Of a stretch of DNA of 64,000 nucleotides, positions 20,278-55,265 are shown one piece after another (position 1 is the first letter of the stretch; each line of letters starts with the position of its first letter). Made by a program: the position numbers and the translations under genes. A model generated the notes under the pieces. It had not been told where the DNA came from. It worked only from the letters and a program-made list of their open reading frames with translations, and did no database searches. Origin of the DNA: Armatimonadota bacterium. GTDB lineage: Bacteria > Armatimonadota > HRBIN16. Location: positions 558,001-622,000 of the forward strand of contig BPGT01000002.1 of the NCBI GenBank assembly GCA_026003175.1, written 5' to 3'.

Positions 20278-20302
20278 CAAGAAGAACGCCTCTTCAAGGC
20301 GT
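20278..20302 (-). terminator. Hairpin overlapping the stop of the tail-fibre-like gene
   Basis: ACGCCT-TGAAG-AGGCGT on the minus strand starts inside the TGA stop and is followed by the T-rich TCTTCTTG. It is a reasonable, though weak, intrinsic terminator. Confidence 0.5.
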
Positions 20303-21692
20303 CAACGGGCGATCTCCTGGTGGAGAATGCCCATCTCCTTAGGTTGTCCATACAGCTCTGGGTGCAGATACTTCCCCTGCTGTTCCTTAGGCTTCATTTG
20401 TTCCGTCAGGAAACCGTATTCCTGTACCCAGCGGTCGTTGCGTATCGCCTCTACCCGCCAGGAAACCTCTGTGTACGGCTTGCTGGTGCGGATTACGAAT
20501 CGGTTGTTTTGTATCTTGCGTACAACCTTTGCCAGCACGAAGTCGTCGCTGCTGTCAATCACCGTTAACTGGTAGCGAAAGTCGCGGTTGATCGCCTCAA
20601 AGTAATCGGGCAGGCATACGACCGCGTAGCCTTGGGCATCAGTGATAATGTTCCCGCTGTAGGCGTTGTATGGTTCGGGGCCTTCCGTGCAGAAGTGATT
20701 CAGATATGCTCTGTCCGGTTTCAGCGGATGGTCTATCTGGAAGGACTTGGTACCGCTGGCGGCAAGGTTTCCGGCAGAATATACGCCATAACTGGATGAG
20801 GAATCGGTTTGCCCTAGAACTCCGACGTTCACGGTAGCATAGCCGTACACTCCTGCCCCACCTGTGCTGTTGCTGCGCCCGTAAACGCCGTATGCACCTC
20901 CTTGGCTCGCAGTTGCATATCCGTACACCCCTCGCCCGTCGACGCTGTCACTACGTCCGTACACCCCAAAAGTTTGTCCCCTGTCGGGGGTAGCGGTCGC
21001 ATAGCCGTAGATACCGGCCCAAGGGGCTGTACCGTACACTGCTGTACCTCCGGGGCTGTTGCTTCGGAAGTAGCCTCCGTATGCGCTGCCGCTGGTAGCA
21101 CTGCCGTAACCGTAGACACCGGCACCATCAGGACTGTTACTTTGCCCAGACACACCGTACGTATACCCGCTGGAGGCGTTAGCCAACCCTGCCACACCTA
21201 TTCCCGCACTGCTGGCACTCTCGAACAAACCTCCGTATGTGTAGCCAGTAGTTGCCGTTGCTACACCACGTACACCTTTGCCACCGGTGCTCTCGCTCTG
21301 GAACCAACCACCGTATGTGCCTCCGCTTGTGGCTGTTGCATGTCCTACTACGCCTTTGCCTGAACTACTGTAGCTTCTTCCATATACACCGTACGTGTAG
21401 CCACTGGAAGCGGTTGCTAATCCAAACACTCCCATCCCGGCGGTACTAGCACTTTCGAACCAACCGCCATAAGAAACACCGCTAGTAGCAGTGTGTCTGC
21501 CAAAGATGGCACGGGAGCTTAGCGAGGTTTCCACATGCAGCAGATATACTGGGTTCGATGTACCTACTCCCACATTCCCGTTTGTGTAGTAGATATCGCT
21601 TCCAGATTGCTGCCATTGCGCGATCGCTGTTGGGGAGCATAGTGTAAAGAGAAGCAGGATCAACCCCCCCCTGCAAGTATAGTCGTTTTCAC
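20302..21692 (-). CDS. Secreted repeat protein, tail-fibre/S74-like (frameshifted in signal peptide)
   Basis: A 463-residue secreted protein if one base is restored. A GTG at 21690-21692 lies 9 nt after AAAGGAGG and begins MKTTILAGGG. With nine G instead of the eight present (21664-21671), it reads on as a perfect signal peptide ending SPTAIAQ; as sequenced, that frame stops after ten codons. The mature part opens with NGNVGVGTSNPVYLLHVE, as in phage-tail-like and S74 proteins. About eight Gly/Tyr-rich repeats follow (YGVYGRSNSTGGAGVYGYAT type). The C-terminal domain begins SFQIDHPLKPDRAYLNHFCTEGPE and includes DFRYQLTVIDSS. It is probably a surface fibre; the function is unknown. Confidence 0.75.
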
Positions 21693-21752
21693 TGTTTTTT
21701 TCCTCCTTTATAGATAGTAGGATTACGGGAATTCCCCGCATGTGCTATTGAG

Positions 21753-31727: not shown

Positions 31728-31779
31728 TGAAGGTGTAGTACGGCAACAAATCTATTTTGGCAAAGGAGGGTTCGTGAAC

Positions 31780-33814
31780 ATGAAGGCTCGTCTGCTCATG
31801 GTGGGGTTATTGCTCGCGTTGCTGGTCACAGCGGGCAACGCCCAGGATAACCTCGATTCACCATGGGGCGTGAAAAACGCCGACATCTATGCCACGAATG
31901 CGTTCCCGGTGTGGCAGCTGCCTACAGCGGGCGGTTGGGTGGACACACCCGTGGACCTTGCTGCCTACGCCATCCGTTCGGGTGGGCACTATGAAGTGCA
32001 AACGGTGTTCGACTCCGAAGGGAATATCTACTTTCGCGGTAGCATTGGGGCGGATGCTCCCAACAACAGCGTGCGCATCTACTCGTTTACCGCTGATGGC
32101 ACATTCCGCTGGAAATCCGATAGCATCTTCGGCAACTGGCCTGGCGCGTCACCTATCGTTGGGCAGAACGCTGTATACGGGATCGGCGCGGAGTACGGCA
32201 AGGCGGGTACCGGTAGCCCACCGGTGGTCGCTGCGCTGGATAAGAACACCGGGGCAACGCTCTGGACAACGGTATTGCCTGAAGGGCAGCCGGGCTGGGC
32301 GGCTACACTGTACGATGGGGTGCTGTATGTTGCCACGCGCGACTACCTGCGCTCTACCGGGGAAGAAGATATCCCAACGGTTACCATCTACGCTCTGAAC
32401 GCGGCGAACGGCAACGTGCTCAACCGCTACGATGTCACAGTGTCGCAAGGGGGGGTGGACAGCCACTCCACGCACCTCGCTGACCATCGTACCTGATGCA
32501 TTCGGGGCAGGCGCACACGGACTGTACTTCACGATAGACCGTTCTCCGAGCGATCCAACCGCTCCCACCGTGTTTGGCATCAACCTAGCAACAGGCAGCT
32601 ACTGGACAGCTTCGTCGGGCAAAGCGTTCCACAGCCATATCATCTACTCACCGGTGACGAACGAGCTCATCAAGGTCTCCTGGAACGATTACGGGCAGAC
32701 CATCGCTACCCTTGATCCGGCGACCGGAGCGATAAAGCATGAGTCCAACTGGAGCGGTGTGTCGATGATTGACCCTCTGCAGTCGCTGGAGTCTTCCAGC
32801 TCGTGGCTGTGGAGCAATATTGGTGGGCATGGTTATGCGGACACCGCTGCACTGTTGCCGGACGGCACCTCGGTGATTACCGCGGGCTTCGGTGGTGTGG
32901 TTGTCCTGTATACCCGCGACGATTCAGGAGCGTATACCGGGCGCATCCTGACACAGGGCGCATCGCACTGGGGCGAGTTCCACAACATGGCGCAACTGCT
33001 GGTGTCCATGCCGTCTACAGGTCCCCAGTTCCAGGAGTCTCCTGCGATATGGCTGACCGCTACCCGTTCGGAACGCTCTGAAACCGGACAGACTTCGATG
33101 ATTATCGCAGTGGACGCCTTGACGGGGCAGGTGCTCTGGCAATACGATACACAGCGCGCAAGTCAGGTAGACCTGCGCGGCGGCGCGGTGGTGGGACCGA
33201 GCGGCAAAGTTTACTATATGACACCGGATAACGTGCTGCATATCCTGTCACCGGCTGAGGCGGCGCAGATCGAAGGCGCGGTGGAGATGCCGGGCTACGC
33301 GGGACCGATGAACACCGGCAGCGGCGACGGCAGCTGGACGGCGATGATACCGCTGACCCTGGAGTTCCGGCAGCCCGGCACGACCAACGTGCTGTTCCGT
33401 AAGACGGTCGCGCTGACGATGCCCCAGCTTGACGGCGGAATCGCCACGTTCAGGCTGAACAACATCCCGGCAGGCACGTACGATATCGCCGCTAAGGAGT
33501 ATATCCAGTTCTTCCCGTGGGACGGCGGCAGGACGTTCAAGTTCACCCGATGGCTACGGGCGAAGGCGTCGGACGTGGTCGTGCCAGCCAACGGCACGGG
33601 TAGCGTAGCCGTGTCCTTGGTCATGCTCGCTGGCGACGCCGACGACGACAACGAAGTCACCCTGTTCGACTTCGGGTTGCTGGTGCAGGCGTTCGGCACG
33701 CTGCGTGGTGATGAAGGCTGGAACCAGGCGGTAGACTTCGACGGCGATGAGGAGATCACGCTGTTCGATTTCGGCATCCTGGTGCAGAACTTCGGCTTGA
33801 TCGGCGAGGATTAG
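31780..33814 (+). CDS. Secreted PQQ-like beta-propeller protein with dockerin-like tail (one frameshift)
   Basis: The ATG at 31780 follows AAAGGAGG and begins a signal peptide (MKARLLMVGLLLALLVTAGNAQ). The frame breaks in a run of seven G (32449-32455). Removing one G joins VTVSQGG to WTATPRTSLTIVPDAF and gives 677 residues. It is a full paralogue of the next protein, with propeller blades such as ALDKNTGATLWTTVLP and AVDALTGQVLWQYDT. An Ig-like module follows, then a two-repeat calcium-type tail, DADDDNEVTLFDFGLLVQAFG and DFDGDEEITLFDFGILVQNFG. The tail resembles dockerins. The propeller's ligand is unknown. Confidence 0.82.
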
Positions 33815-33823
33815 TATATCTAC

Positions 33824-34073
33824 TGTGTCATTGCGAGCCGCGAAGCGGCGAAGCAATCTCCATCAAAGCACAGGGGAGATTGCTTCGAGGGCTAATGAAC
33901 TTTGAGAGGTTGAACGCACATGTTCCCTCATCCCCCTGTCCCCTTCTCCCAGAAGGAGAAGGGGGAGACGCCACCCCTCTCCCGTTGGGAGAGGGGTTGG
34001 GGGTGAGGGCAAGTGAGTAAGTATCGCTGTTTTTCAAGTTTTCAAAATTCATAAGCCCCCTCGCAATGACACA
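33824..34073. repeat. Nested inverted elements filling the gap between the two propeller genes
   Basis: The outer ends are TGTGTCATTGCGAG (33824-33837) and CTCGCAATGACACA (34060-34073), the same family as 5734-5824. The outer element also contains GCAATCTCC/GGAGATTGC arms. Inside it, imperfect inverted ends of about 26 bp starting GGGCTTATGAATTTTGAAAA (right, 34034-34058) and GGGCTAATGAACTTTGAGAG (left, from 33889) flank two CCCTTCTCCC/CCCTCTCCC hairpins. There is no coding potential. Confidence 0.75.
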
Positions 34074-34170
34074 CTCAGTGCTTGATTGCGGTCGAAACAC
34101 CCCGTGAAGACGGGGTATGACGATATAGACACTTCGCATAGTCCTTGACTTCGGAAAAGGAGGGTGCAAA

Positions 34171-36270
34171 ATGACAGCTCGGTTCGCATCTCTCGTGGCG
34201 CTGTTTCTGCTGGTTGCGAGTGTTGTCTGGGGGCAGATACCGGATAATCCCGACGGTCCCTGGGCGCAAAGGAATACGGATATCTACCGTACCAACGTGA
34301 CCACAGCTCCCTACATCTTCCAGAATGGTGGGGTCGCGGTACGGGCAGTGCCTTTGCCGAGTGGGGTACAGCCGCCTCGTCATGGGTTCCACAGTCAGAT
34401 TATGTTCGACTCGCAGGGTAACCTCTACTGGCGGGGTAGCAACAACGAACCCAGTCCAAACCCTAACGAGAGCGTCAGTATCTACTCGCTGGACCCGAAC
34501 GGCAACCTGCGGTGGAAGTCGGACAACCTGTTCGGCCACTTCCGTGCGTGGGGTGCGCCACTGGTTGGACAGCAGCGCATCTACGCGGTCGGCACCGACT
34601 TCGGCAAGGCGGGACCGGGCTCGCGTCCGGTTATTGCCGCGCTGGACAAGGGCACCGGCGCGACCATCTGGGCAACACCGCTACCGCCAGGTCCACCAAA
34701 CTGGTCACCTGCCCTGGCATTAGCAAACGGTGTTCTGTACGCTGCGTCCGAGCCGTGGCGGAAGACGGTTGGCGAGGAGGACATCACAGTCATTACTGGC
34801 TTCGCTATTGATGCCGCTACTGGCACCATCGCATTCATGGCGGACTACCAGCTGCCGAATGGTGTGCCGGTAGCAACTCCCGGCTCACCTGTGGGGATGC
34901 CCAATCAGGCGTTTACCATTGTGCCGGATGCCTTCCCCACAGGTACCACCGCGGAGCCGGGTATCTTCTTCAACGTGTCCTCCAACGTGCCAAACGAGGA
35001 AACCATCATCGCGATCAACCTCAACACGGGAAACGTGCAGTGGAAAGCAGTTGGCGAGAAGATGAATCACAACCACCTCATCTACTCGCCGGTGAACCGC
35101 GAGCTGTACAAGGTGTCGTGGAGCGACTACGGCTACACCTTCACCGTGTACGACGTGGCGACAGGCGCTGTCAAAGGACGGTTGAACGCTTCGCAAGAGT
35201 CGTTCCTGGACCCGCTAGTGCCGTCTGATGGTTCCTCGAACCTGCTGTGGCACAATGTAGGTGGGCATGGCTACTGCGATACCGCCTCGCTGCTGCCGGA
35301 CGGCAAATCCATCATCACCGCAGATTTCAGCGGTGTGGTGAGTATCTACTCCAGCGACGGACAAGGCAACCTTGCTCATCGTATCCTGCTGTCGGGTCCC
35401 TCGCATTGGGGCGAGATGCATCACTTCGCGCAGTTGCTCGTCCCCCCTGCAGGGCCATCGCCGGAAGGGGGCGTATGGATTGCCATGACCCGCCACAACC
35501 CGGACGACCCCTATCACAGCGACACGGTGCAGGTAATCGCTGTAGACGCGGCAACAGGGCAGGTGCTGTGGCAGTATGATACAGGCATCTGGGGTCCGGT
35601 GTGGCACAACTTCTACACCTTCGATATCGGTGCACGCGCGCCGGTTGCCGTCAGCCCGAGTGGAAGGCTTTACTATGTGCGCCAGAACGCGCTGTACATT
35701 CTGGAGCCTGCCGAAGCACCGCAGATCGACGGCAGGGTGGTACTGGACGGCTACTGGGGCTCGCCCAATTACGGTGGCGGAGATGGCACATGGACGGTGG
35801 CGCCGCCGCTAACCCTGGAGTTCCGCGAGCCGGGTACCACCAACGTGTTGTTCCGCAAGAGCATCGCGCTGAACGTGAACACCGAGGCGGATGTTCGCGG
35901 TGGGGTAGGCTGGTTCAAGCTGAACGGTATCGAGCCCGGCGTGTACGATATCGCCGTGAAGAGCTACGTGCAGGACCGCTTCGGCAGATACTACGAGTTC
36001 TCGCACTGGCTGAGAGCGGTCGCGCGAAGCGTATCGGTGCCGCCGAGTGGCACCGGTAGTGCACCTGTCGAACTGTTCATCATCAACGCCGACGCGGACA
36101 ACGACAACGAGGTGACGCTGTTCGACTTCGGCTTGCTGGTGCAGGCGTTCGGTGCACTGCGCGGCGACGAGAATTGGAACCAGGCGGTGGACTTCGACGG
36201 CGATGAGGAGATCACGCTGTTCGATTTCGGCATCCTGGTGCGCGACTTTGGTTTGATTGGGGAGGAGTAG
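34171..36270 (+). CDS. Secreted PQQ-like beta-propeller protein with dockerin-like tail
   Basis: A 699-residue intact paralogue of 31780-33814. It has a signal peptide (MTARFASLVALFLLVASVVWG) and a propeller region at about 60-520 (AALDKGTGATIWATPLP, AVDAATGQVLWQYDTG, GGHGYCDTASLLPDGKSIITADF). An Ig-like domain follows at about 540-630 (LTLEFREPGTTNVLFRKSIALN). The C-terminal tail has two repeats of D-x-D-x-(D/G)-(N/D)-E-(V/I)-TLFDFG. It starts after AAAAGGAGGG. A terminator follows at 36282-36321. The duplication suggests surface proteins carrying the same docking module. Confidence 0.88.
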   Translation: MTARFASLVALFLLVASVVWGQIPDNPDGPWAQRNTDIYRTNVTTAPYIFQNGGVAVRAVPLPSGVQPPRHGFHSQIMFDSQGNLYWRGSNNEPSPNPNESVSIYSLDPNGNLRWKSDNLFGHFRAWGAPLVGQQRIYAVGTDFGKAGPGSRPVIAALDKGTGATIWATPLPPGPPNWSPALALANGVLYAASEPWRKTVGEEDITVITGFAIDAATGTIAFMADYQLPNGVPVATPGSPVGMPNQAFTIVPDAFPTGTTAEPGIFFNVSSNVPNEETIIAINLNTGNVQWKAVGEKMNHNHLIYSPVNRELYKVSWSDYGYTFTVYDVATGAVKGRLNASQESFLDPLVPSDGSSNLLWHNVGGHGYCDTASLLPDGKSIITADFSGVVSIYSSDGQGNLAHRILLSGPSHWGEMHHFAQLLVPPAGPSPEGGVWIAMTRHNPDDPYHSDTVQVIAVDAATGQVLWQYDTGIWGPVWHNFYTFDIGARAPVAVSPSGRLYYVRQNALYILEPAEAPQIDGRVVLDGYWGSPNYGGGDGTWTVAPPLTLEFREPGTTNVLFRKSIALNVNTEADVRGGVGWFKLNGIEPGVYDIAVKSYVQDRFGRYYEFSHWLRAVARSVSVPPSGTGSAPVELFIINADADNDNEVTLFDFGLLVQAFGALRGDENWNQAVDFDGDEEITLFDFGILVRDFGLIGEE

Positions 36271-48903: not shown

Positions 48904-51900
48904 ATGTTACGTAAAAGGTTATTCCTGACCCCCCCCTATTAGTGTAATCCTTGCTACGTTTCTGTTCCTGCTGGTCTCCCTTGCACGAGCACAGCAACCT
49001 CCCACGCTCACCCTCCTCAATGCCGACATCGACGGCGATAATGAAGTCACCCTCTTTGACTTCGGGGCACTAACGAACGCCTTCGGCAGTGTGCCCGGCG
49101 ACCCCAACTGGAACCCCGATGCCGACCTGGACGGGGATGATGAGGTGACCCTGTTTGACTTCGGTATCCTGACCGCCAACTTCGGTCTTATCGGTGCGGA
49201 GGAGTTTGCAGGCAGCACGCAGTCGGCGTCGGGTGTGTTTACCGCCACGGTGCACGTGGTGTTGGGTGACTGGACAGCCCAGACCGACCGCGCGGTGTAT
49301 GTGGTGTTGCAGTTGAAGCGAGCGGGCACGGAGGGCGATTCGGGCACCCCCATTTACGAGCAATCGGTGACCTTCACGCAGGGTGAGGTGGAGAGGGATG
49401 TGCAGGTTCACCTTGCTGCTGGCATTTACACGGTGCGTGCGCTGGCATATAACGACGAGGCACACACCGACATCTCGCACTGGTTGCGCAGTGAGTTGAC
49501 AGGGTTCGTGGTGCCCAGTGGAGGTGGTAGCGCCCGCAACGTGGTTCCTGCTCCAACGTGGGCAGAGGAGGTCATCCCAGCGGACAGTGTCCCTTCTGGC
49601 GGGATGGGGCCCTCCAGTGCGAGCAGGGTGAATCTTGCCTCAGGGGCATACGAGCACGTTCCCCCTGCTGACCTAGAGGTGCCCAACCCGTTCGGCCCGT
49701 TTGTGGCGTTCGCCCGGCGTTATAGCAGCTGGATGGCGCAAGCAGGTATCAGTTCTCCCGGTTTGGGAGTAGGGTGGAAGCACAGCTTAGACCTTTTCAT
49801 CACCTGGGACAGAGTTTCCAACCCCACAACAGCCACATTATTCTATCCTAACGGTGCTACCGAGTCACTGGGCGCGACCCAGCAAGGTAGCGCGTATCGG
49901 TTCACGCCGCCGGAAGGGGCTCCGTATGCCGGGTTGGCAGAGCCAGACAATGCCTACCCAGGTGGCTGGCGGATTACCCTGTTCTACCGCGACTACTCGC
50001 GACTGGTTTTCGCGCCCGTTTCCGACCAGATGCTGACTGTCTTCCGTCTGGTGGGAATAGTGGACCGTGCGGGCAACGCGGTGGGGCTGTTCTACCAGAA
50101 CGGACTGCTGCGTTACGTGCGCGCTGGCGGTACTAACCTGCTGGAACTGGTGTATGACGGCAACGGGATGCTGGCGCAGGCGAAGGCGTATGACGCAGGC
50201 GCGAACAACTACGCTACTGTGACCTACACCCACCAGCAGCTAGACGACGGCAACCGCCATCTGGTGCAGGTTTCGCAGATAAATGCTCCAGCCTCCTTGC
50301 GCTGGGGGTTCGGTTATGGCTACGTGTGGACACGCCAGGACAACAGCCAGGTGCGTCTGCTGACGCACGTCAGCGCACCTGACCCGCGAGGCGGTGGGGG
50401 GATACTAACGGTTCCAGTGGCTTACGATAGCAACGGCATGGTGCAGATGCTGATGGACGCCAACGGTCATGCCCGCCGCTACGTATACCAGAACAACGGT
50501 ACGACCGATGTGGAGGTGTACAACGGCTCTACTGGCGAACTGGACTTCGGCTGGACACAGAAGCTGGGTGTGGCAGGGGTAAACGGCGGTATCGTGGATG
50601 CACTCAGCAATCAGAGCCAGCTGGTGTATGCCAACACCTACTTACCCACATCCTATACTAACCGCAATGGGCAGACTCTGCAGGCGAACTACGACCAGTA
50701 CGGTAACCCTACCACAATGATCGCTCCGCGCAACATCCGTACGGTCATCAACTACACCTATCCCGCCGACTACCCAATCAGCCCCATCCAGCAAGTAGAG
50801 GTGCGGCAGATAGCAGCCAACGGCACGGCGAAGACTTCGACCATTTACACCTTCTACACGCCTGCGGAGGAGGCGCTACAGGTTCCGGGCGCGAAGGCAG
50901 GTTTGCTCAAAGAGGTACAGTCCCCACGTCCGGGAGTATCTGGCGAGCGGGTGAGCACGCGCTATTACTATACCTCACAGGGCAATCTGGCGGTAGTGGA
51001 AGCACCGGGTGCCAACGATGCGGGGCGCAAGCGGACGACGGTGTACTTCTACGATCGCGACCCCTTCAATGGCGAGAACTTCGTGCCCTTGCTGGGGCGT
51101 CCGGTAGCGGTAGCGGTGTACGACGAGACCATCGCCAACGTCTGGGGCGAATACCAGAACTGGCTACAAAACCGCAACGACACCTTCTGGACGCAGTCGC
51201 CTCGACGGCTCATCTTCTTCGATCGGTATCGCTATGACCTGCTTGGGCGGCTTGTTTCGGTAACAGACGCCGCGGGCAACACCACCAGCTTCACCTACAA
51301 CGAGGCGAACCAGCTGGCAACGGTTACCTATCCTCCAGTAAAAGACGCAGTAAGAGACGACACGGGCAAGTGGATCCCCACGTGGGTCACCACGAAGGAG
51401 CAGTATGTGTACTGGCCAGGCGCAGGTGGACAGCTCAAGCAGGTGCTGTTGTTCGCCAATAACGTGTTCTTCCGGTCGGCGGATATTAACGTGGGCGCGG
51501 AAGGTGAGCAAAAAGGCACCACCGGCACCAGCGTTCAGCCGATACAACTGGGCTATGATGCACAATATCGACCGCTAGGTGTGGTGGACGGCAGAGGCAA
51601 CGCTACCACCTTAGGCTACACGCAAGCAGGGTTCCCCAACCTGAAGCAGTATCCTCTGGCAGATGCCTTCCAGTGGTATTACGCCCCGGTGAACCAGCAA
51701 AGCCTGTGGTGGGGCGAGGATAAGGAGGGTAACCCCGTTGCCCGGCTGGATGCCAACGGCGTGCTGACGCGCTATGTGCGGGATGCCGAGGACAGCCGAT
51801 TGCTGCGGGTAGAGTACTACAGCGAACCATACGACCCGAACAGTCTCATCAGTTCCGAGACGGTATACATCGGCTACGACGAGTTCAACCGTATCTCGCA

Positions 51901-53296
51901 GCTGGTCAACGCACAGGCGCAGATAGACTACACCTACGACGACAACGACCTGTTGCTATCGGTGACCATCACCTATCCCGCACCTGTCGGCACGAAGACC
52001 ATCAACTATCAGTACTACCCCGACGGCAGTCGCAAGAGCATGAGCGTGCCCAACGTGGGTACCTTCAACTACTATTACTACTACACCGACGGTTCCGGCA
52101 CGATGCGGGTGATGGGATCGGTGGTGCGGGTGACCTGTCCCTGGACGCTGCATCCGAATATCTCGTGCAACTATGACCAGGCAGGACGACTGCGCCGTGA
52201 AACCAACGGCGGTGTGCTCATAGACTACGACTACTACCCACGCGGGCTGCTTAGCCGACAGGTGAGTTATTCCGGAGCGGGTAACTTACTCTCTGCTTTT
52301 GCCGATTTCGATGCTGGAGGGCAGCCTACCCTAGAGGGCATCTTCTACGACGCCTCAGGCAATCGCACACATCTACTGGTAACTATCCCGCCGCAGCGAA
52401 GTGCGCTGGGCATCGCCGGGCAGATCGACTACACCTACGACAGTCGTGACCGCCTCAGCCGTGAGACCTTCACACTGGCGAATAACCAGGTGTGGTACGA
52501 CGACCAATACACCTACGACAGTGCAGATAACCCTACCTCTATCCACGGTTCCAGCTACACGCACAATGCAAACAACCAGGTCAGCAGTGCATTGTTCCAG
52601 TATGACGACAATGGCAACGCCATCCTCTTCCGGGGATTGGCTGTCGGTTTTGACCTGGAGAATCGCATAGTGCAGCTGCCCGACTTGTTTTGGGGCGGAA
52701 GCAACGTCATCACCTCGCGTTATCGTCCGGACGGCTTGCAGGCGTGGAGGCAAGACGCTAACGGGCGGGTGTACTTCCTTTACGACGGTACACGCCTTGT
52801 AGCGGAATACAGCGGCAGCAACGGTAGCCTGTTGCAGCACTTCGCCTACTCCGCCGAGGGCTTGAACCAGCGGCGTGGCAACCAACACCGACTGTTTACC
52901 TTTGACCCCGACGGCAATCTGGTGCACCGCTTGACAGCCGGTACGGTTAGTGCGTTGAGCATCACCTGGCACAACCGTTTAGGAGTGGTGTATCAAGACC
53001 AACTCGCCAGCACGGGACAACTAGTAGATGTTCCCAACGCCGGCACGGTTGGTTATCAAGGCTACCTCGGCGCCTACTCCGACGCCAGTACCCGCACCTT
53101 GGGGCAGGCACGCTTCGCCGCGCTGGTTACGTTGAACGCAGGTGGATACTTCGACCCTGTCACCGCGCAGGGGATGCAGCGCGACCTGGGTGCAGTCAAC
53201 CCCTACACCCGCCTGTATCGTCAGGGTGGCTCCCTTGCCGACCGGTTGACGAATCTGGTATATATCCTGGGCGGATGCGGGCTGGACGTCAGGTGA
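48904..53296 (+). CDS. Secreted Rhs/YD-repeat protein with N-terminal dockerin-like repeats (frameshifted)
   Basis: The ATG at 48904 follows AAGGAGG. As sequenced the frame stops after 12 codons; with seven rather than eight C at 48929-48936 it reads on as a signal peptide (ISVILATFLFLLVSLARAQQ). Two dockerin-like repeats follow (NADIDGDNEVTLFDFGALTNAFG; DADLDGDDEVTLFDFGILTANFG), then an Ig-like domain. A long run of Rhs/YD repeats, about 1100 residues, forms the shell that encloses a toxin tip. The frame ends at 53296, but removing one G near 53273 fuses it to the next gene. With both corrections 48904-53846 is exactly 1647 codons. Confidence 0.85.
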
Positions 53297-53324: not shown

Positions 53325-53846
53325 GTGAAGGCGGTCGATGCCCTGCAGCGCACCATCGGCACCGCGTGGGAGATCCAGAACATCGCAGCACTGCCCAGGC
53401 TGGCAGGCGGATTAACTCTGGCGGCAGGTGAAGCAATATCAGAACTAGGTGAGCGGGGCATTAGTATTGCCTCACGGTTACAGCGTTTAGCCCGCGTCAT
53501 AACTACCGAGGTTGAGTCGTACAGAACCTTCCGTTATCTGAAGCAGACACATCCAGAGGCAGTTGTCGAGCTTTATCATTACACAAGCGGCAAGGCCGCC
53601 CAAGAGATTATGGCATCGGGCTTTCTGCGCGGTGGGCGTGGCTTATGGCGCCTATGGGCATCCGAGGATGTCTATTTCTCCGTTTACCCAAATGCTCCAG
53701 GATGGCTTTTGAAGGGCGTTTACATGCTTGAGCCTGCCAAAACACAGGTGGTGATACCTGTCAGATTACCTCTTAAAGAGGTCATCTGGCGACCATTCGG
53801 TATTCGGATAGTGCCTGGGCCTGTGCCCATAGCCGCTGGTTACTAA
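53325..53846 (+). CDS. Rhs C-terminal tip: putative ADP-ribosyltransferase-like toxin
   Basis: A 173-residue frame that is most likely the end of the Rhs protein, reached through DAGWTSGDPSAAEGAAF just upstream. The first part (NIAALPRLAGGL, encoded at 53379-53413) is conserved in the displaced tip at 54.8 kb. The variable part includes ELYHYTSGKAAQEIMASGFL and EDVYFSVYP, resembling HYD1-type or related ADP-ribosyltransferase-like toxin domains (HYT motif, then VYFS). That match is by eye only. The next gene is 15 nt away, the normal place for an immunity gene. Confidence 0.65.
   Translation: MKAVDALQRTIGTAWEIQNIAALPRLAGGLTLAAGEAISELGERGISIASRLQRLARVITTEVESYRTFRYLKQTHPEAVVELYHYTSGKAAQEIMASGFLRGGRGLWRLWASEDVYFSVYPNAPGWLLKGVYMLEPAKTQVVIPVRLPLKEVIWRPFGIRIVPGPVPIAAGY
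53379..53413 (+). repeat. 35-bp direct repeat, copy 1 (inside the active toxin tip)
   Basis: Identical to 54786-54820 and in the same reading frame; it encodes NIAALPRLAGGL. It is the junction between the constant Rhs part and the variable toxin domain, a natural site for homologous recombination. Confidence 0.95.
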
Positions 53847-54773: not shown

Positions 54774-55265
54774 ATGTCGTACGGTAACATCGCAGCACTG
54801 CCCAGGCTGGCAGGCGGATTGGGAGTAGGTCTACTCGATGTTGCCGAAGACCTTGCTGGCGGTGGGTTCCGCCTGGCACGGCAAACCGCACGGCAGGCGG
54901 CAAGGGAACTCCCGCCCGTGGTGATAGGTGAGAATATGGAACGGGTCAGAGCCTATGCACGGATGATTGGTGCAGAGACGATAGACGATTGGTTGGCAGG
55001 ACGCCAGTGGACTGAGGAACTCAACGCGGCGTGGATTCGCCAAATGATGCGACAAGGACGCCGTGTGATTGACATCGGACCTGACTTTACTCGACGCCTG
55101 AAGCGGTATCTCGATATCCGCGCGGGGAAGCCGAATGTTCCCTCGCCTATATCCGACCCATATAACCTTGAACGCCGCTTGCTGAAAGGCTATCCACGTT
55201 ATGAAAAGCAGTTTATCCGACGAGGCAAGTGGTGGGGCGGCGTCCTAGACCTTAGTGAACTTTGA
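54774..55265 (+). CDS. Displaced Rhs C-terminal tip (orphan toxin cassette)
   Basis: A 163-residue frame beginning with the conserved junction NIAALPRLAGGL. It continues into a different C-terminal domain: RVRAYARMIGAETIDDWLAGRQW, VIDIGPDFTRRLKRYLDI and LERRLLKGYPRYEKQF with RRGKWWGGV. I recall the IDIGPDF...GK..GG pattern from the ends of other Rhs proteins, but no activity is known to me. There is no ribosome-binding site before its ATG, so it is likely silent until recombined into the main gene. A candidate immunity gene follows at 55318. Confidence 0.7.
   Translation: MSYGNIAALPRLAGGLGVGLLDVAEDLAGGGFRLARQTARQAARELPPVVIGENMERVRAYARMIGAETIDDWLAGRQWTEELNAAWIRQMMRQGRRVIDIGPDFTRRLKRYLDIRAGKPNVPSPISDPYNLERRLLKGYPRYEKQFIRRGKWWGGVLDLSEL
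54786..54820 (+). repeat. 35-bp direct repeat, copy 2 (orphan tip junction)
   Basis: An exact copy of 53379-53413 in the same frame; the sequences diverge immediately on both sides. Recombination between the copies would delete about 1.4 kb and swap the first tip and its neighbour for the second. Confidence 0.95.

What the first reader, a model, noticed from the sequence alone, without database searches (positions are those of the whole stretch)
33640..36270. Dockerin-like TLFDFG module shared by three secreted proteins
Two beta-propeller proteins end in, and the Rhs protein starts with, two repeats of D-x-D-x-x-x-E-(V/I)-TLFDFG-x-L-x-x-x-FG. The acidic loop followed by TLFDFG recalls dockerin calcium loops, but LFDFG replaces the usual dockerin helix signature. 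A common docking or surface-anchoring system would link a toxin shell to the propeller proteins. Position at opposite ends suggests a movable module.
Basis: partly seen in the sequence, partly recalled or inferred. Interest (0 to 1): 0.65.

Follow-up and report, generated by a model that had tools for sequence, protein, structure and literature searches.

The report
X-dockerin tail tag without cohesins
Three secreted proteins in this hot-spring bacterium carry a genuine calcium-loop dockerin, the docking plug known from cellulosomes; 46 full copies sit at the extreme end of exported proteins across its genome, yet no matching cohesin socket can be found, so what they plug into is an open and testable question.

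Summary
The module is a real dockerin: it passes Pfam's Dockerin_1 cut-off, both calcium loops are complete, and the model of the Rhs copy fits a solved type II dockerin (1.3 Å, 60/60 residues). LFDFG does not replace the helix signature: its D is loop ligand 12. The true unit is a dyad, a prealbumin/CnaB-like X domain plus the dockerin, homologous to the type II X-dockerins that anchor clostridial cellulosomes. This Armatimonadota genome has 46 full copies: 35 end at the C-terminus (X-Doc), 11 directly follow a signal peptide (Doc-X), none is internal. Carriers include propellers, subtilases, a beta-helix and Rhs. No cohesin was found in 10 genomes of the genus, although the same profiles find cohesins elsewhere in the phylum. 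Best reading: a calcium-dependent surface-docking tag whose receptor is not a recognisable cohesin (docking inferred). Unexpectedly, the N-terminal copies, Rhs included, have a C-rich run inside the signal-peptide codons. Its length varies and mostly puts the gene out of frame, while the OFF Rhs gene is under purifying selection: a probable phase switch.

The parts
31774..33814 (+). Propeller protein 1 (secreted), split by a frameshift; ends in X-Doc
   Evidence: Two overlapping ORFs 31774-32496 and 32432-33814; orthologues open throughout
32449..32455 (+). G7 run at the frameshift of propeller 1
33254..33628 (+). X domain (prealbumin/CnaB-like) of propeller 1
33629..33811 (+). Dockerin of propeller 1, last 61 residues of the protein
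   Evidence: PF00404 25.9 bits, cut-off 22.9
34171..36270 (+). Propeller protein 2: signal peptide, PQQ-like propeller, X, Doc
35725..36084 (+). X domain of propeller 2, with SHWLR signature
   Evidence: AlphaFold2 model m30219932e156
36085..36267 (+). Dockerin of propeller 2, last 61 residues
48890..48896 (+). Shine-Dalgarno AAGGAGG of the Rhs gene
48904..48942 (+). ATG and charged signal-peptide n-region of the Rhs gene, running to a stop (TAG 48940) in the wrong frame
48929..48936 (+). C8 run between n-region and h-region of the signal peptide: putative phase switch
49019..49201 (+). Dockerin of the Rhs protein, directly after the signal peptide
   Evidence: PF00404 25.9 bits isolated; model fits 2y3n_B Z 10.4
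49235..49522 (+). X domain of the Rhs protein, after the dockerin (inverted order)
   Evidence: profile of C-terminal X domains matches at E about 4e-9
48929..53296 (+). Rhs/YD-repeat protein reading frame (1455 aa)
   Evidence: PF05593 1.5e-20, TIGR01643

Best explanation
The module is an X-dockerin dyad of the cellulosomal type II kind, used as an export-and-dock tag. Proteins leave the cytoplasm by Sec; the two EF-hand loops bind calcium and fold the dockerin next to the X domain; the dyad then docks on a partner at the cell surface or in the extracellular matrix, holding propellers, proteases and other cargo at the cell. The partner is either a cohesin too diverged for the profiles or a different receptor. 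Shown: homology of both halves, complete loops, strictly terminal placement, cargo diversity, absence of recognisable cohesins. Inferred: calcium binding, docking, surface location. In the N-terminal (Doc-X) subset, which includes the Rhs gene, export is probably switched by slippage of a poly-C run inside the signal-peptide codons.
For: Dockerin: PF00404 over its cut-off; loop positions 1, 3, 5, 12 are D in both loops of 46 copies, except 2 copies at position 3 of loop 2; Rhs dockerin model on type II dockerin 2y3n_B, Z 10.4, rmsd 1.3, 60/60, Foldseek TM 0.89 on the target. X-Doc: profile of 34 genomic dyads hits 4wi0_B at 6.6e-12, then 4u3s_B, 2b59_B (CipA), 5k39_B and 3kcp_A, spanning X and Doc. 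Terminal tag: all 35 full C-terminal copies end within one residue of the stop, 11 follow a signal peptide, none internal; 31 of 37 C-terminal carriers (35 full plus 2 half copies) have a signal-peptide-like start by a crude test. Cargo: PQQ/WD40/NHL propellers, S8 subtilases, beta-helix, PA14, GHL10, Rhs. No cohesin: 0 of 10 genus genomes by PF00963 and by a phylum-tuned profile, which rings in 8 of 8 cohesin genomes. Literature: type II X-dockerins bind type II cohesins in Acetivibrio (PMC4217186).
Against: No partner identified and no binding shown. Residues 10-11 of the loops are LF rather than the usual small polar pair of clostridial type I dockerins (own knowledge), so known specificities may not carry over. 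The dockerin half of the X-Doc model of propeller 2 has low confidence (pLDDT mostly under 55); the Rhs model is good only in the dockerin. Dockerins without cohesins may be plain stabilising end-caps.
Confidence: 0.62

Rival explanations
1. The X-Doc dyad is a calcium-stabilised terminal cap with no partner: it protects the ends of secreted proteins of a thermophile against proteolysis or fraying.
For: No cohesin in the genus; always at an extreme end; X-Doc-rich genomes of the phylum have fewer cohesins than the rest (0 of 41 against 36 of 250, Fisher 0.004; genomes are related, so the p value is optimistic).
Against: A cap would not obviously need the conserved non-ligand residues (LF at 10-11, G14, the FG after each helix); close homologues are high-affinity docking modules.
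Confidence: 0.2
2. It is a C-terminal sorting signal read by a dedicated secretion system, in the manner of type IX secretion CTDs or PEP-CTERM tags.
For: Strict C-terminal end, mostly closing in acidic residues, in 35 copies; a preceding beta-sandwich domain recalls type IX CTDs (own knowledge).
Against: 11 copies sit behind the signal peptide in inverted order, which a cleaved C-terminal signal cannot explain; the dyad is a clear dockerin homologue.
Confidence: 0.08
3. X-Doc tags bind each other or a shared glycan and build an extracellular matrix without a protein receptor.
For: High copy number and diverse cargo; no receptor found.
Against: No precedent known to me for dockerin self-assembly of this kind.
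Confidence: 0.08

Closest known systems
Type II X-dockerin of clostridial cellulosomes (CipA of C. thermocellum, ScaA of A. cellulolyticus; PDB 2b59, 4u3s, 4wi0)
   Same: X domain of CnaB-like fold followed by a two-loop dockerin at the C-terminus; profile match over both parts
   Different: 46 full copies on mostly non-cellulolytic cargo; no cohesin; inverted Doc-X form at the N-terminus
Non-cellulosomal dockerin-like modules (Peer et al. 2009, cited in PMC2930009; the paper itself is not held here)
   Same: Dockerins in organisms without cellulosomes
   Different: Here a genome-wide terminal X-Doc system, with X-Doc dyads in 76 of 291 genomes of a phylum
Rhs-bearing ScaP2 scaffoldin of C. 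alkalicellulosi (PMC6780208)
   Same: Rhs repeats and a type II X-dockerin in one protein, whose X-dockerin binds type II cohesins there
   Different: That protein also carries a cohesin, peptidases and galactose oxidase; here Doc-X lies at the N-terminus and no cohesin was found
Opa leader-peptide repeats of Neisseria (PMC3960869)
   Same: Repeat slippage inside the leader-peptide codons switches a surface protein
   Different: Poly-C run instead of CTCTT repeats; unrelated proteins; switching not shown here

Membership tests
Dockerin domain (PF00404) | Score over the curated cut-off | tested here: met
   25.0-25.9 bits for the three isolated copies, cut-off 22.9; in two full-length scans the score is lower (propeller 2 18.7 bits; Rhs not listed)
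Dockerin domain (PF00404) | Two calcium loops D-x-D-x-D...D12, each followed by a helix | tested here: met
   46 copies; helices 22-31 and 55-63 in the model
Dockerin domain (PF00404) | Dockerin fold | tested here: met
   2y3n_B Z 10.4, rmsd 1.3, 60 of 60
Dockerin domain (PF00404) | Calcium binding | not testable with these tools
   ligand residues complete; no measurement
Type II X-dockerin dyad | X domain adjacent to the dockerin, homologous over both parts | tested here: met
   4wi0_B 6.6e-12, profile positions 29-142; X modules of cellulosomes among fold matches at Z 5.5-5.7, which is weak on its own
Type II X-dockerin dyad | Order X then Doc (both propellers and all other C-terminal carriers) | tested here: met
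Type II X-dockerin dyad | Order X then Doc (Rhs and the other N-terminal carriers) | tested here: not met
   Doc then X; these are described as an inverted variant, not filed as X-dockerins
Cellulosome (cohesin-dockerin system) | Cohesin-bearing scaffoldin in the genome | tested here: not met
   PF00963 none at E<=10; genus none; tuned profile none, positive control 8 of 8
Cellulosome (cohesin-dockerin system) | Cargo mainly plant-cell-wall enzymes | tested here: not met
   propellers, subtilases, beta-helix, Rhs; one glycosidase-like GHL10
Phase-variable contingency locus | Slippery run early in the gene, length varying between copies, frame-changing | tested here: met
   25 genes in 6 genomes, longest C run 4-11, both OFF frames and ON seen
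Phase-variable contingency locus | Switching within one population | not testable with these tools
   needs raw reads or culture

The most novel reading that the evidence does not exclude
Armatimonadota run a cohesin-independent, calcium-dependent docking system: X-dockerin tags on dozens of exported proteins plug into a receptor of a new kind, and the N-terminal Doc-X branch (Rhs, metalloprotease-like and other proteins) is switched on in a minority of cells by poly-C slippage in the signal peptide.
Probability: 0.4. Interest if true: 0.78.

Novelty: new variant of a known kind. Interest (0 to 1): 0.6.

Why it matters
Dockerins are understood only as one half of a pair with cohesins. A whole branch of a phylum that uses the anchoring form of the dockerin as a bulk terminal tag without any recognisable cohesin makes the long-standing question 'what do orphan dockerins bind?' directly testable, could give a new calcium-triggered thermophilic coupling tool, and links an Rhs protein to surface attachment and to a likely phase switch, in a group for which I found no paper on phase variation.

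Tried and rejected
'Only three proteins': rejected (46 copies). 'Structural linker in all secreted proteins': rejected; never internal and missing from other exported-looking proteins of the window. Cohesin in the genome: sought with PF00963 and with a profile of eight Armatimonadota cohesins, none; a far-diverged cohesin is not excluded. Assembly error as the cause of the poly-C frameshifts: unlikely, because about 11 other C7/G7 runs deep in long reading frames of the same assembly are intact and five other assemblies show the same site with other lengths; for the single G7 in propeller 1 it remains possible. Alternative in-frame start for Rhs: no ATG/GTG/TTG between the run and the dockerin; CTG or ATT starts without a Shine-Dalgarno cannot be excluded. 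Foldseek for the X-Doc model gave no match under E 0.001, so the X fold rests on sequence (Pfam CarboxypepD_reg) and modest fold scores. Literature on Armatimonadetes dockerins: only passing mentions.

Full report
Where it is. The window is part of a 4.1 Mb, 97 % complete genome (G000, contig C2). Its closest named records are Armatimonadota metagenome genomes (Bacterium HR16, Chthonomonadia bacterium Ch118, Armatimonadetes bacterium RSWS16).

The observation. The repeat is at 33629-33811, 36085-36267 and 49019-49201. The two propeller proteins end with it; in the Rhs frame it comes right after a signal-peptide-like stretch. Aligned, the three share 38 of 61 columns. Read against the dockerin loop, DxDxDNEVTLFD is loop positions 1-12: ligands D1, D3, D5 and D12, with the D of LFDFG being D12. 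Pfam Dockerin_1 scores 25.0-25.9 bits on the isolated module against a cut-off of 22.9; in the full-length scans the score is lower (18.7 bits in propeller 2; not listed for the Rhs frame).

Genome-wide. PF00404 finds 50 places and the three-copy profile 53 places in the genome. I took out 46 copies of at least 60 residues. 35 end within one residue of the stop codon; 11 start directly after a signal peptide; none is internal. Loop positions 1, 5 and 12 are D in all 46 copies in both loops, position 3 in all of loop 1 and in 44 of loop 2. 31 of 37 C-terminal carriers (35 full and 2 half copies) show a signal-peptide-like start by a simple hydrophobicity test. Carriers include PQQ, WD40, NHL and sortilin-type propellers, two S8 subtilases, a beta-helix, PA14, a GHL10 protein and several of unknown fold.

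The unit is a dyad. In the C-terminal carriers about 85 residues before the dockerin are conserved ('..GTYDVAFKASHWLR..'), often matched by CarboxypepD_reg, a prealbumin-like family. A profile of these regions matches the stretch after the dockerin in 10 of the 11 N-terminal carriers (6e-12 to 3e-4, small database; the eleventh is truncated). So the order is X-Doc at the C-terminus and Doc-X at the N-terminus. Against solved structures, the profile of 34 X-Doc dyads hits first the type II X-dockerins: 4wi0_B 6.6e-12, 4u3s_B 2.3e-11, 2b59_B (CipA) 2.6e-11, 5k39_B 8e-11, 3kcp_A 1e-10, aligned over both parts. The AlphaFold2 model of the Rhs Doc-X (pLDDT 85-94 in the core of the dockerin, low elsewhere) superimposes on the type II dockerin 2y3n_B at Z 10.4, rmsd 1.3 over 60 of 60 residues. 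The X-Doc model of propeller 2 shows a confident beta-sandwich whose matches are prealbumin/CnaB-like folds, with X modules of cellulosomes at Z 5.5-5.7, a modest score; its dockerin half has low confidence.

The partner. No cohesin in G000 at E<=10 nor in any of the 10 genomes of the genus. A profile of eight Armatimonadota cohesins also finds none in the genus, but rings in 8 of 8 control genomes with cohesins (one of them only at E 0.3; none of the eight gave a row to the profile, though G276 shares a genus with one that did). X-Doc dyads occur in 76 of 291 genomes of the phylum. Of my count of 41 genomes with seven or more, none has a cohesin match, against 36 of the other 250 (Fisher 0.004; shared ancestry makes this optimistic). 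That search scored at most 13 candidates per genome, so X-Doc counts are lower bounds.

Mechanism. Known X-dockerins of this kind bind type II cohesins, which tie scaffoldins to the cell surface (PMC4217186; PMC3413522). By homology, terminal placement and cargo diversity the best reading is a docking tag; that it docks, and where, is inferred. Rivals are an end-cap, a sorting signal and self-assembly.

An unexpected switch. None of the 11 N-terminal carriers of G000 has its signal peptide in frame with its ribosome-binding site and start. Each has a Shine-Dalgarno and ATG/GTG, an n-region, then a C-rich stretch, and the hydrophobic h-region in another frame. Across the genus I tabulated 25 distinct genes in six genomes: longest uninterrupted C run 4-11, 23 out of frame in either of the two wrong frames, 2 in frame, one of those with a stop soon after. 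One third ON would be expected by chance; the excess of OFF (P 0.0035 if the genes were independent, which they are not) is unexplained: most cells may be OFF, or some product may be made by slippage. Between two OFF Rhs genes of different species dN/dS is 0.07-0.10, so the protein is under selection. Other C7/G7 runs deep inside long frames of this assembly are intact, which speaks against systematic homopolymer error. Only one of 33 C-terminal carriers has a C or G run of six or more in its first 120 bases, and that gene is in frame. Leader-peptide switching of this kind is known from Neisseria Opa (PMC3960869).

Runs of eight or more C or G are rare in this genome: 58 overlapping places in 4.1 Mb. 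Of about 35 distinct runs, five lie in N-terminal dockerin genes, one or two in other signal peptides, and five in a repeated -35/-10-like spacer.

Novelty. Dockerins without cohesins are not new as such (Peer et al. 2009, cited in PMC2930009), and Rhs with X-dockerin is known from C. alkalicellulosi (PMC6780208). New as far as I could find: the scale, the type II X-Doc identity, the strict terminal placement, the inverted Doc-X form, and its link to a poly-C run.

Noticed in passing
window 21664-21671 (-), ORF 20302-21741: A G8 run between the n- and h-region of the signal peptide of a repeat-rich secreted protein (VYGYATATSG repeats), out of frame with its GTG start: same layout as the N-terminal dockerin genes, no dockerin.
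   Followed up: partly
L162, L172, L173, L179, L180 (G000 C2:230627, 688955, 944307; C3:123453, 128472): Five copies of TTGAC(A/G)C-G(8-11)-ACAGAGTAGAAT: a poly-G run of varying length inside what looks like a -35/-10 spacer, as in phase-variable promoters.
   Followed up: partly
L146, L182, L185: A family of three C9-C10 runs just before TCATG..(G)GAGG(C)GAAG, context not understood.
   Followed up: no
window 53325-53846 and 54774-55265 (+): Two ORFs after the Rhs gene begin with a shared IAALPRLAGGL stretch, each followed by a possible immunity-like ORF: they look like orphan Rhs C-terminal cassettes.
   Followed up: no
G000 C1:1508630, C2:606929 (window), C3:154106: Three Rhs genes with nearly identical signal peptide, dockerin and X domain but diverging bodies: a mosaic family.
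   Followed up: partly
L043, L047, L041, L046: N-terminal dockerin genes of about 700 aa with an HExxH metalloprotease-like motif, and two internally deleted relatives.
   Followed up: no
window 32449-32455: Propeller 1 is frameshifted at a G7 run, orthologues intact; decay, switch or sequencing error not decided.
   Followed up: partly
L110 (G283): Elsewhere in the phylum, a lipoprotein-like protein holds a cohesin-like stretch and a dockerin in one chain.
   Followed up: no
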